64,000 bases of DNA from an uncultured Bacteroidota bacterium (GCA_902561795.1 CACERG010000001.1:124001-188000), one strand, 5' to 3'; positions 37,409 through 40,768 are shown, counted from the stretch's first letter. Notes: a model not told the origin generated them from the sequence alone. Program-made: numbers and translations.

Positions 37409-38051
37409 CTATCTCTGATTTTCATCCCATTCTTTTTTATGTTTTCTAACACTAAAAGTCTCTCCTGCTTTATACCAATTTAAAACTTTGTAAGTTTCCT
37501 GAATTACACCATCATAAACGGCAAAGACATATTTAACTTGTTTTCTTCTTTTTTCACTAATGACCCATATACCCCGAGTATATTCATAAAGGTCTCTTGG
37601 ACTCATATTATATCTGAATGTTTGGGATAATTTGATTAATAAAACTTTTTCTTTAATGTTAACCTTTTTACTACTATATCTGGATATAGTTTGATTGAGA
37701 TCCATTCTTCCAAAATCGGAACTTTCATATCCCCCAATTTGATTTGATAAGTTTTTTTTGTCAATTAAATCAATAATTGAAGCTTCTATCTTTTTTACTG
37801 TTTTTTCGTCTTCTATACCATGAACTAAGATTTCTATGAACTAAGATTTCTATCTTTGGATTTAATCCTTTTTTAAGAATATCATTTATTCTTTTTGAAC
37901 GATTACTTTCATCTAAATTTTTAAAATGTGAGAAAACTCTATTCCCCTGTCCTTTACCAACATAAAAAATTGAATTATCAAAAGGGTCTATTAATAAATA
38001 AATGTAATACTTTAAATTCCTTACTACTTCTTTAGGAAAACTATTAATCAT
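37409..38051 (-). pseudogene. LEM3-like GIY-YIG domain protein, frameshifted by 16-bp tandem duplication
   Basis: ORF fragments 37770-38051 (YYIYLLIDPFDNSIFYVGKGQGNR) and 37409-37705; deleting one 16-bp copy joins them as ...EILVHGIEDEKTVKKIEASIIDLIDKKNLSNQIGGYESSDFGRMDLNQTI... Confidence 0.85.
37820..37851. repeat. Perfect 16-bp tandem duplication ATGAACTAAGATTTCT x2
   Basis: Copies at 37820-37835 and 37836-37851. Confidence 0.97.
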
Positions 38052-38721
38052 ATTTCCAGTTTTTTATCACGTAATTTCTCCATAACCCTTTTTTTCTTCC
38101 TCCATTACTAAACAAATTTTCCTCTAGATCCAATGGTTGAATTTTAATAATTTTTGAGAGGTTTTCAACAATTTTACAAAATTTAGAATATTCCTCAACG
38201 TGATTTTTATCTGTTACTAAACCTTGTGAATTTAACCAAATAATTTTTTCTTGTGTGATTAAATTAATTGATTTAGATGTCCATTGATCCATAATGAATC
38301 CGTTTAATGATGGATTTAAAAAACAAATTAACTTTGTAAAATATGCTATCCCCATTCCTTTCAGTTTCCCCTTTTTTCTTAAAAAGGAAAATTGATTAAA
38401 AGATTCTTCTCTTGAATTTATAGATTTATTTCTAATACTCTTTACGACTGATAACCAACTTTTATCTTCTAGTAACATTTTCCCAAAGTTTCTGTTCATC
38501 CCTCCCCAAGCAAAAATTATCAAGGAACATGTCAAATCATCGTAATTATCAAAAAACCCCTCTTTGAGTAATAAACCCCTATGATATCTGTGATTTAAGT
38601 CTTCCGATAATTCGAATTTTATAATATCCTTAGACCACTTCAAAGTATTTGTACCTTTCCATCTAGAGAACTTCCCTAATGATTTTATAAATTCATTTAA
38701 ATGGTTTTCGTTATAATTCAA
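38044..38721 (-). CDS. Probable 8-oxoguanine DNA glycosylase OGG-fold protein
   Basis: LKGMGIAYFTKLICFLNPSLNGFIMDQWTSKSINLI (helix-hairpin-helix-like, G-x-A-x-F-T-K-L and D motif); TTG start. Confidence 0.55.
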   Translation of the reverse strand: MNYNENHLNEFIKSLGKFSRWKGTNTLKWSKDIIKFELSEDLNHRYHRGLLLKEGFFDNYDDLTCSLIIFAWGGMNRNFGKMLLEDKSWLSVVKSIRNKSINSREESFNQFSFLRKKGKLKGMGIAYFTKLICFLNPSLNGFIMDQWTSKSINLITQEKIIWLNSQGLVTDKNHVEEYSKFCKIVENLSKIIKIQPLDLEENLFSNGGRKKGLWRNYVIKNWKYD

Positions 38722-38728
38722 GTTTATT

Positions 38729-39343
38729 ATGAATAAAAATTTTATCGAAGGAGTTAACTATTTAAAAAAAAATGATTTAACTCTTAAAAAGATTATAAAT
38801 AAAACAGATCAAATTAAATTTGAAATTAAACAAAACAAATTTGAATGTTTATCCAGAATAATTATTTCACAACAATTATCAAACAAAGCTTCAAATACAA
38901 TTATTAAAAGAGTTGAAAATAAAATTGAAGAATTTTATCCTGAAAAATTTATTTCAATTAAAAAAGATGATATAAGAAAATGTGGTGTTTCAAATTCAAA
39001 GTATAATTGTATAAAATTTATTTCAAATGAAATCATATATAATGGTCTAGATTTAGATTCCTTGAACTCAAGATCCGAGGATTTTATATTTAATAAACTT
39101 AGTTCTCTTAAAGGAGTTGGACCATGGTCTATTAACATGTTTTTAATTTTTGGATTAGGAAAATTAAATGTCTTTCCAATAAATGATGTAGGAATACAAA
39201 ATTCCATAATGAAGTTTTATTCAATAAATGAAAAACCATCTTCTGAAAAAATGACAGAATTAAAAAACAAATGGGACCCATTTTGTACAATAGCTTGTTT
39301 GTATCTTTGGGACTCTTATGATAAAAATTTAAATATTGATTAG
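38729..39343 (+). CDS. HhH-GPD DNA glycosylase, AlkA/3-methyladenine-like
   Basis: IIISQQLSNKASNTI, HhH LSSLKGVGPWSINMFLIFGLGKLNVFPINDVGIQ with catalytic-position Asp. Confidence 0.85.
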   Translation: MNKNFIEGVNYLKKNDLTLKKIINKTDQIKFEIKQNKFECLSRIIISQQLSNKASNTIIKRVENKIEEFYPEKFISIKKDDIRKCGVSNSKYNCIKFISNEIIYNGLDLDSLNSRSEDFIFNKLSSLKGVGPWSINMFLIFGLGKLNVFPINDVGIQNSIMKFYSINEKPSSEKMTELKNKWDPFCTIACLYLWDSYDKNLNID

Positions 39344-39785
39344 TAAAAAGTTTAATCGTGTAAATTTTAATCTTTCTGATAGAGATAGAATTGTCAATGC
39401 AGTAATAAAGAAACTTAATCTTAAAAACAAATTTGAATTAAATGACCGAATGGAAGGTGTGATGTTTTTAGACAAACATATAAGGAGGGTTTTTAGTTCA
39501 ATTGTTGTAGAAAAGGAATATAATATATGTTTAACCTCAAAAGAAAAACCATTAAGATGTTCAGATGAGTTTATTCATAATAATTTAAAACATAAAATAG
39601 TTTCACCAAACTCAAACGGATCAATTATCATCAATTGGAATGATTTTGAAGTTTTAATTATTGTAGTAATTGATGATGTATATAAGTCTGGATTTATAAG
39701 AAAAATATTAACAAAGGACTTAATCATAAATAAAATCAATCATAAAAGAGGAAAAAAAATGACTTTAAGTATTGATAGTTTATGA
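39336..39785 (+). CDS. Hypothetical protein, unknown family
   Basis: 149 aa, TTG start overlapping upstream stop; ATGA overlap with downstream methyltransferase. Confidence 0.7.
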   Translation: MISKKFNRVNFNLSDRDRIVNAVIKKLNLKNKFELNDRMEGVMFLDKHIRRVFSSIVVEKEYNICLTSKEKPLRCSDEFIHNNLKHKIVSPNSNGSIIINWNDFEVLIIVVIDDVYKSGFIRKILTKDLIINKINHKRGKKMTLSIDSL

Positions 39786-40768
39786 GTAAAAAATATTCTG
39801 TTGGGAGTCTATATGCGGGAGTAGGTGGTATTTGTCTTGGATTTATCAATAGTGGATTTAAAATTGGTTGGGCAAACGAATACGATAAGAATGCTTGTAT
39901 AACATATAGAGAAAATTTTAATCACCCTCTTTTTGAAGGGGATGTTATGAAATTGGACATCAAAAACCTTAAAAAGGTTGATGTATTGGCTGGAGGATTT
40001 CCTTGTCAACCATTCTCAGTTGCTGGATATAGAAAAGGGTTTGATGATAATCGGGGAAATCATTTCTTTAGAATGTTAGAATTTACAGATGAAATGAGAC
40101 CTAAAGTCTTATTTTTTGAAAATGTAAAAAATCTTGTAGGTCATGATAAGGGAAATACTTTCAAGGTTATTAAGAAAGAAATTCTTTCTAGAAATTATTC
40201 TTTTCACTCTAAAGTTTTGAACACAAAAGATTATGGAAATATTCCTCATAATAGAGAAAGAATTTTCATAATAGCTTTTGATTACGATTTATATCCAGAT
40301 GTTGATTCTAGATTCAGATTTCCAGAAAAAGAAGAGTTAAACAGATCTATTTTAGATATTGTTGAAGAAAAAAAAGTAGATGATAAATTTTATTATGGGG
40401 AAGAAAAATATATGTATCCCATGTTAAAACAATCAATGAAGAAAGATGATACTGTTTATCAATTTAGAAGACAATATGTTAGAGAAAACAAATCAAATGT
40501 TTGTCCTACTTTAACAGCAAACATGGGGACTGGAGGACACAATGTTCCATTAGTTAAAACTAAATTTGGATTCAGAAAATTAACTCCTAGAGAGTGTTTT
40601 AGGTTTCAGGGTTTTCCAGATAATTATAAATTTCCTAAGATAACTAACTCACAACTATATAAACAATCTGGGAATTCAGTGAGTGTTCCAGTAATTCAAA
40701 GGATCTCCAAAAATATTTTAAATGTTCTTAATGGAGGAAGTTGTAAAAGTGAATTTGAATTATTTTAA
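39782..40768 (+). CDS. DNA (cytosine-5-)-methyltransferase
   Basis: SLYAGVGGICLGF (motif I), GGFPCQPFSVAGYRKGF (IV), FFENVKNL (VI), CPTLTANMGTGGHNVP, LTPRECFRFQGFPDNY (VIII-X). Confidence 0.96.
   Translation: MSKKYSVGSLYAGVGGICLGFINSGFKIGWANEYDKNACITYRENFNHPLFEGDVMKLDIKNLKKVDVLAGGFPCQPFSVAGYRKGFDDNRGNHFFRMLEFTDEMRPKVLFFENVKNLVGHDKGNTFKVIKKEILSRNYSFHSKVLNTKDYGNIPHNRERIFIIAFDYDLYPDVDSRFRFPEKEELNRSILDIVEEKKVDDKFYYGEEKYMYPMLKQSMKKDDTVYQFRRQYVRENKSNVCPTLTANMGTGGHNVPLVKTKFGFRKLTPRECFRFQGFPDNYKFPKITNSQLYKQSGNSVSVPVIQRISKNILNVLNGGSCKSEFELF

What the first reader, a model, noticed from the sequence alone, without database searches (positions are those of the whole stretch)
38044..40768. Two DNA-glycosylase-fold genes next to a C5-cytosine methyltransferase: possible base-excision-coupled modification system
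Seen: an OGG-fold-like gene (minus) and an AlkA/HhH-GPD gene (plus) start only 7 nt apart. The AlkA-like gene is coupled by overlapping start/stop codons to an unknown 149-aa ORF and then to a Dcm-type MTase. Known: m5C MTases create T:G mismatches by deamination; Vsr, or the HhH glycosylase Mig of Methanothermobacter, travels with some R-M systems to repair them. Inference: the glycosylases either protect the host from m5C mutagenesis or act as excision-based effectors against differently modified phage DNA. The combination of two glycosylase folds plus an unknown protein is not one I recognise as a named system.
Basis: partly seen in the sequence, partly recalled or inferred. Interest (0 to 1): 0.68.

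Follow-up and report, generated by a model that had tools for sequence, protein, structure and literature searches.

The report
Restriction-modification system beside DNA-repair glycosylases
A marine bacterium's small defence island carries an ordinary-type DNA-cutting/DNA-marking system with a possibly new cutting enzyme family, joined to a DNA-repair gene that may clean up damage caused by the marking; the second repair-like gene appears to be an unrelated neighbour.

Summary
The core is a type II restriction-modification (R-M) system, window 39336-41506. R248 homologues pair with M328 homologues in five other loci, so R248 is the likely endonuclease; it matches no Pfam, NCBIfam or PADLOC family. 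The "unknown 149-aa protein" is a divergent member of a family (165-198 aa) usually directly upstream of such methyltransferases.

The AlkA-type glycosylase is coupled to this operon, but only here: 0 of 29 of its nearest Bacteroidota relatives have a C5 methyltransferase nearby. A repair role, in the slot held by Vsr or a Mig-like enzyme in sister systems, is plausible but unproven. The OGG-like gene is a separate unit, overlapping a broken PD-T4-3 defence gene. Everything sits in a 7.1-kb island bounded by tRNA-Met and a 31-bp copy of the tRNA's 3' end. No evidence supports an excision-based anti-phage system. The new aspects are the uncharacterised R248 and U families and the AlkA coupling.

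The parts
37228..37304 (+). tRNA-Met(CAT); left boundary of the island
   Evidence: the same tRNA, 100% identical over 76 nt, lies near rbfA-lolE in same-genus genome G525
37409..38051 (-). PD-T4-3-like GIY-YIG defence gene, split into two ORFs (93 and 98 aa); carries a 16-bp tandem duplication
   Evidence: PADLOC PD-T4-3 E=8e-18 and 6e-11 for the two halves; tandem repeat 37820-37853
38044..38721 (-). OGG-like HhH protein (PF21790), stop overlaps the start of the PD-T4-3 gene by 8 nt; not considered part of the R-M system
   Evidence: neighbours of plasmid relatives; absent from 21 related MTase loci
38729..39343 (+). AlkA/MAG-type DNA glycosylase (HhH-GPD, W133, D153), coupled upstream of U149
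   Evidence: only AlkA-type gene detected in this (80.8% complete) assembly, none in two same-genus genomes
39336..39785 (+). U149, divergent and N-terminally short member of the R-M accessory family U
   Evidence: HMM of the other U proteins scores U149 33.0 bits, E=4e-10; best of 2000 shuffles 9.2 bits; relic of U plus the M start in L026, 77.5% DNA identity
39782..40768 (+). M328, C5-cytosine DNA methyltransferase, predicted GCNGC-type
   Evidence: relatives paired with Bsp6I or NgoFVII-PLD REases
40760..41506 (-). R248, predicted restriction endonuclease of an undescribed family (conserved E73, D105, K116)
   Evidence: convergent with M in L018, L071, L072, L088, L114; alignment A2; no Pfam/NCBIfam/PADLOC family
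41499..42353 (-). X284, uncharacterised protein coupled upstream of R248; D..K pattern could mark a nuclease (inference only)
   Evidence: no family, structure or genome match
42424..44265 (+). MazG-like and DUF2779 / Cas4-like genes, remaining island cargo
   Evidence: DUF2779 gene not found in two same-genus genomes
44408..44438 (+). 31-bp copy of the tRNA-Met 3' end (29/31 identical); right attachment-like boundary

Best explanation
A type II R-M system of the GCNGC (Bsp6I/NgoFVII) methyltransferase group sits in a 7.1-kb tRNA-borne island. M328 methylates cytosine in the host's sites. R248, convergent with M328, cuts unmodified DNA. U149 belongs to an accessory family normally encoded just upstream of M, role unknown. 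HhH204, an AlkA-type monofunctional glycosylase, has been joined upstream by an event that removed about 13 N-terminal positions of U149. The most likely reason it persists is base-excision repair of lesions that the methyltransferase causes: T:G mismatches from deaminated m5C, or methylation by-products such as 3-methylcytosine. That is the slot held by Vsr or a Mig-like enzyme in sister systems. OGG225 belongs to a separate two-gene unit with a broken PD-T4-3 gene and is only an island neighbour. Shown: gene content, homology, architecture, island ends. Inferred: enzyme activities, GCNGC specificity, repair role.
For: The MTase has 69-76% identical relatives beside Bsp6I-family REases (L068-L070, PF09504), beside R248 (L071, L072, L018, L088, L114), or beside Vsr (L073); it has 51-57% identical relatives beside NgoFVII/PLD or Bsp6I REases. 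The R248-M convergent overlap (4-15 nt) recurs in all six R248-M loci. R248 without a neighbouring M in G170 has a GCNGC-group MTase elsewhere in that genome. The U family includes U149. Bsp6I-type MTases modify GCNGC (PMC9465063). Vsr lies next to the L073 MTase and near that of L007, and a Mig-like FeS HhH protein is next to the L023 MTase. HhH204 is AlkA-type. It is the only copy found in its assembly, and none was found in two same-genus genomes. Island ends.
Against: The AlkA-type gene is linked to this R-M family only in the window. AlkA-type enzymes act mainly on alkylated bases, and T:G excision is not their usual activity (family knowledge). R248's nuclease fold was not confirmed: AlphaFold2 pLDDT 65, pTM 0.69, no PDB fold match. 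Expression of U149 and M328 is unknown.
Confidence: 0.6

Rival explanations
1. HhH204 is just island cargo: an ordinary AlkA-type alkylation-repair gene that recombined next to the R-M genes and has no functional tie to them.
For: 0 of 29 nearest Bacteroidota relatives have a C5 MTase within 1.5 kb; HhH204 is a lone long branch in the tree; U149 is N-terminally truncated exactly at the junction, which suggests a recombination scar; the island collects unrelated genes.
Against: The 8-nt overlap would translationally couple it to U149-M; sister systems carry other repair enzymes in the neighbourhood; one AlkA-type gene lies downstream of a SacI-type R-M on plasmids, and a phage AlkA-type gene lies 1.6 kb from two C5 MTases.
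Confidence: 0.4
2. One reading: the two glycosylases are effectors that excise modified bases from phage DNA, working with the MTase and the 149-aa protein.
For: Glycosylases can be phage-defence effectors (Brig1, PMC11078745; BapA, PMC13160076); one OGG-family relative lies next to a Shedu gene; the island carries defence genes.
Against: No recurrence of an OGG-AlkA or OGG-MTase pair was found. Brig1 resembles uracil-DNA glycosylases, a different fold from HhH. The MTase already has a recurrent partner, R248. U is an R-M-linked family present without any glycosylase.
Confidence: 0.06
3. OGG225 plus the PD-T4-3 GIY-YIG protein formed a two-gene defence unit (glycosylase makes an abasic site, nuclease cuts), now probably disabled by the 16-bp duplication.
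For: 8-nt stop/start overlap on the same strand; PD-T4-3 is a known defence family; 16-bp tandem repeat.
Against: No second genome with this pair was seen; plasmid OGG relatives checked have no annotated GIY-YIG neighbour.
Confidence: 0.2

Closest known systems
Bsp6I and NgoFVII (PLD) type II R-M systems, GCNGC group
   Same: Closely related C5 MTase (51-76% identity), adjacent REase, often plasmid- or island-borne
   Different: REase is the undescribed R248 family; accessory U protein; AlkA-type glycosylase coupled upstream
Vsr-linked m5C R-M systems and dcm-vsr; Mig.MthI of Methanothermobacter
   Same: A repair enzyme encoded beside an m5C MTase; Mig is also an HhH protein
   Different: HhH204 is AlkA-type, shows no FeS motif and has Trp at the Mig Tyr/OGG Lys position; its T:G activity is unknown
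AlkA/MAG DNA-3-methyladenine glycosylases (2h56, Mag2, AfAlkA)
   Same: Sequence family and catalytic Asp
   Different: Genomic context: in an R-M operon rather than chromosomal/alkylation-response context
Brig1/Brig2/BapA glycosylase defence
   Same: DNA glycosylase in a defence island
   Different: Brig1 resembles uracil-DNA glycosylases; no evidence that HhH204 or OGG225 acts on phage DNA
R.PabI restriction glycosylases
   Same: Base excision within an R-M context
   Different: HhH204 belongs to the HhH-GPD family, and a separate REase candidate (R248) is present
PD-T4-3
   Same: Neighbouring broken gene matches the family
   Different: Here disrupted and preceded by an OGG-like gene

Membership tests
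Type II R-M system (GCNGC group) | C5 MTase of the Bsp6I/NgoFVII group | tested here: met
   PF00145 E=2e-87; 51-76% identity to MTases beside Bsp6I/NgoFVII REases
Type II R-M system (GCNGC group) | Adjacent cognate restriction endonuclease | tested here: inconclusive
   R248 recurs convergently beside M in 5 other loci with invariant E/D/K, but it has no known family and no fold match
Type II R-M system (GCNGC group) | Cleavage and methylation at GCNGC | not testable with these tools
   needs biochemistry or methylome sequencing
Accessory family U | U149 homologous to proteins upstream of related MTases | tested here: met
   33 bits, E=4e-10; best of 2000 shuffles 9 bits
AlkA/MAG glycosylase | HhH-GPD with AlkA-type Trp and catalytic Asp | tested here: met
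   2h56 E=9e-28; GVGPW 129-133, D153
Mig/Vsr-type m5C repair partner | Recurrent linkage of this glycosylase type to m5C MTases | tested here: not met
   0/29 nearest Bacteroidota relatives; AlkA-type in 1/22 MTase loci, the window itself
Mig/Vsr-type m5C repair partner | T:G mismatch activity | not testable with these tools
   needs assay
PF21790 OGG-like | HMM match above cutoff | tested here: met
   35.9 bits vs 27; Asp145 at the catalytic position by inspection of the motif
Brig1-type glycosylase defence | Uracil-DNA-glycosylase-like sequence | tested here: not met
   Pfam gives HhH-GPD and OGG; Brig1's structural homologues are UDGs
R.PabI restriction glycosylase | PabI-family sequence | tested here: not met
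   Pfam/NCBIfam hits are HhH-GPD / OGG only

The most novel reading that the evidence does not exclude
Some R-M systems have recruited AlkA-type glycosylases to repair damage made by their own methyltransferase: 3-methylcytosine by-products or deaminated m5C. This would be a bacterial counterpart of the DNMT-ALKB2 co-evolution described in eukaryotes. R248 would then be the REase of a system with a built-in 'side-effect repair' gene.
Probability: 0.22. Interest if true: 0.65.

Novelty: new variant of a known kind. Interest (0 to 1): 0.4.

Why it matters
It identifies a likely undescribed restriction-endonuclease family (R248) with a testable predicted target, and an undescribed accessory protein family (U) of GCNGC-type R-M systems. 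It also gives a concrete case for asking whether R-M systems carry repair enzymes matched to the collateral damage of their methyltransferases. And it shows that the apparent two-glycosylase system is most likely an island-level coincidence.

Tried and rejected
- Two-glycosylase defence system: no recurrence of the OGG link.
- U149 as a wholly unknown orphan: rejected. Weak U149 hits in L002-L006 look like chance matches, with stops inside the frame in all but L004 and unrelated ORFs in L004 and L005.
- R248 as a Bsp6I relative: hhalign found no similarity. No PDB sequence match and no fold match.
- U structure: model too poor to use, pLDDT 36, so no fold search was run.
- U related to R248 or Bsp6I: no.
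- X284: no homologues found.
- HhH204 phylogeny: no informative grouping.
- GCNGC avoidance: none in the window. 85 sites are seen against 42-70 expected; the absence of sites in the AT-rich island itself is about what composition predicts.
- Genome-derived homologues were not sent to the structure predictor, because its stated rule allows only window and the search for related loci/search_dna sequences.

Full report
**Observation.** The ORFs are as described. OGG225 (38044-38721, -) matches Pfam PF21790, E=8e-9. HhH204 (38729-39343, +) matches PF00730, E=2e-15. U149 (39336-39785, +) matches nothing. M328 (39782-40768, +) is a C5 DNA methyltransferase, E=2e-87. Between the two glycosylase starts there are 7 nt. 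HhH204/U149 overlap by 8 nt and U149/M328 by 4 nt. HhH204 is AlkA/MAG-type: its best PDB match is 2h56, E=9e-28, with GVGPW at 129-133 and Asp153 at the catalytic position.

R248 (40760-41506, -) is convergent with M328 and overlaps it by 9 nt; X284 overlaps R248. OGG225 overlaps by 8 nt the ATG of a PD-T4-3-like GIY-YIG gene (PADLOC E=8e-18 and 6e-11 for two ORFs). That gene is split and carries a 16-bp tandem duplication at 37820-37853.

**Island.** tRNA-Met(CAT) at 37228-37304 has a 31-bp copy of its 3' end (29/31) at 44408-44438. These ends enclose 7.1 kb containing all the genes discussed plus MazG-like and DUF2779 genes. In a same-genus genome (G525) the identical tRNA lies near rbfA-lolE. 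It is followed by other genes and, about 2.1 kb away, by another partial copy of the tRNA 3' end. The tRNA is therefore likely an integration hotspot. HhH204 was not found in either same-genus genome examined; M328 was not found there at the strict threshold (E <= 1e-70), and OGG225 was not found in G525, the only one of the two searched for it.

**The R-M core.** In 400 Flavobacteriaceae genomes, 11 (window genome included) had an M328 match at E <= 1e-70. I compared 22 loci with at least about 50% MTase identity, window included. Relatives at 73-76% identity (L068-L070) have a Bsp6I REase (PF09504) just downstream. L071, L072, L018, L088 and L114 (70-74%) have R248 convergent with M, the ends overlapping by 4-15 nt. 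More distant relatives (51-57%) have Bsp6I or NgoFVII/PLD REases. Bsp6I-type MTase modifies GCNGC (PMC9465063); NgoFVII recognises a subset of it (my knowledge). GCNGC is therefore the predicted target, by inference. R248 without M in G170 sits with Vsr, and that genome has another GCNGC-group MTase, 54% identical. R248 homologues share invariant E73, D105 and K116, a pattern compatible with a PD-(D/E)XK-type nuclease. However, the AlphaFold2 model (pTM 0.69, pLDDT 65) had no PDB fold match, so the endonuclease call rests on context and motif.

**U149.** Directly upstream of M in L068, L069, L070, L072, L074 and L088, and next to R248 in L071, is a 165-198 aa protein. A profile of six of these proteins finds U149 at 33 bits, E=4e-10; with L088 added, U149 scores 32.8 bits and the best of 2000 shuffles 9.2 bits. 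The Arctic Flavobacteriaceae contig L026 carries a decayed copy of U plus the first codons of M, 77.5% DNA identity across the junction. So U149 is R-M-linked. It lacks about 13 N-terminal family positions exactly where HhH204 ends, which suggests a recombination joint. Function unknown; its structure model was unusable.

**The glycosylases.** Among 22 MTase loci, OGG occurs only in the window. An HhH enzyme occurs in two: the window (AlkA-type) and Caldicellulosiruptor L023 (Mig/EndoIII-type with FeS motif). Vsr occurs in two (L073, L007). The 29 nearest Bacteroidota HhH204 relatives have no C5 MTase within 1.5 kb. Outside, one AlkA-type gene lies downstream of a SacI-family REase with a D12 MTase on two related plasmids, and one lies 1.6 kb from two C5 MTases in a Terrisporobacter phage. 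These few cases are suggestive; no background rate was measured, so no significance is claimed. Four OGG plasmid relatives stand in unrelated settings, one beside Shedu.

**Mechanism.** Most likely M328 marks, R248 cuts, and HhH204 repairs collateral lesions. Two lesions are plausible: T:G from m5C deamination (the Vsr/Mig role; Mig.MthI, PMC2714593), or 3-methylcytosine, a known by-product of eukaryotic C5 MTases that co-evolve with ALKB2 (PMC9246332). Some AlkA enzymes are known to remove 3mC (AfAlkA, entries 2jhn/2jhj; my knowledge). The main rival, passive cargo, is nearly as likely. Excision-based attack on phage DNA, as in Brig1 (PMC11078745) or R.PabI (PMC10273834), has no support.

**Verdict.** This is a new variant of a known kind: a GCNGC-type R-M system with an undescribed REase family, an undescribed accessory family, and a coupled AlkA-type gene.

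Noticed in passing
37409-38051: PD-T4-3-like GIY-YIG gene split into two ORFs; contains a perfect 16-bp tandem duplication (37820-37853) that would shift the frame; could be a pseudogene or a slippage switch.
   Followed up: partly
37228-37304 and 44408-44438: tRNA-Met with a 31-bp copy of its 3' end 7.1 kb downstream; same-genus genome G525 has a different insert at the same tRNA. No integrase gene identified inside the island.
   Followed up: yes
L026:8001-8436: Decayed relic of U149 and the first codons of the methyltransferase in an Arctic Flavobacteriaceae MAG.
   Followed up: yes
41499-42353: X284, uncharacterised gene coupled upstream of R248, with no detectable homologue. In L114 a PD-(D/E)XK-like gene (weak PF11645) and in L088 an LlaJI-family gene occupy the corresponding place.
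   Followed up: partly
L008:3717-6480: AlkA-type glycosylase directly downstream of a SacI-family REase with a D12 methyltransferase on Aeromonas/Comamonas plasmids.
   Followed up: partly
L125:3968-8187: Terrisporobacter phage AlkA-type gene 1.6 kb from two adjacent C5 cytosine methyltransferases.
   Followed up: partly
L023:3205-4954: Caldicellulosiruptor plasmid: Mig-like FeS HhH glycosylase divergent from a GCNGC-group methyltransferase.
   Followed up: partly
L017 and L073: Flavobacterium-like genomes carry R248-Vsr or M-Vsr at the same site next to a riboflavin-synthase-like gene, a likely insertion hotspot.
   Followed up: no
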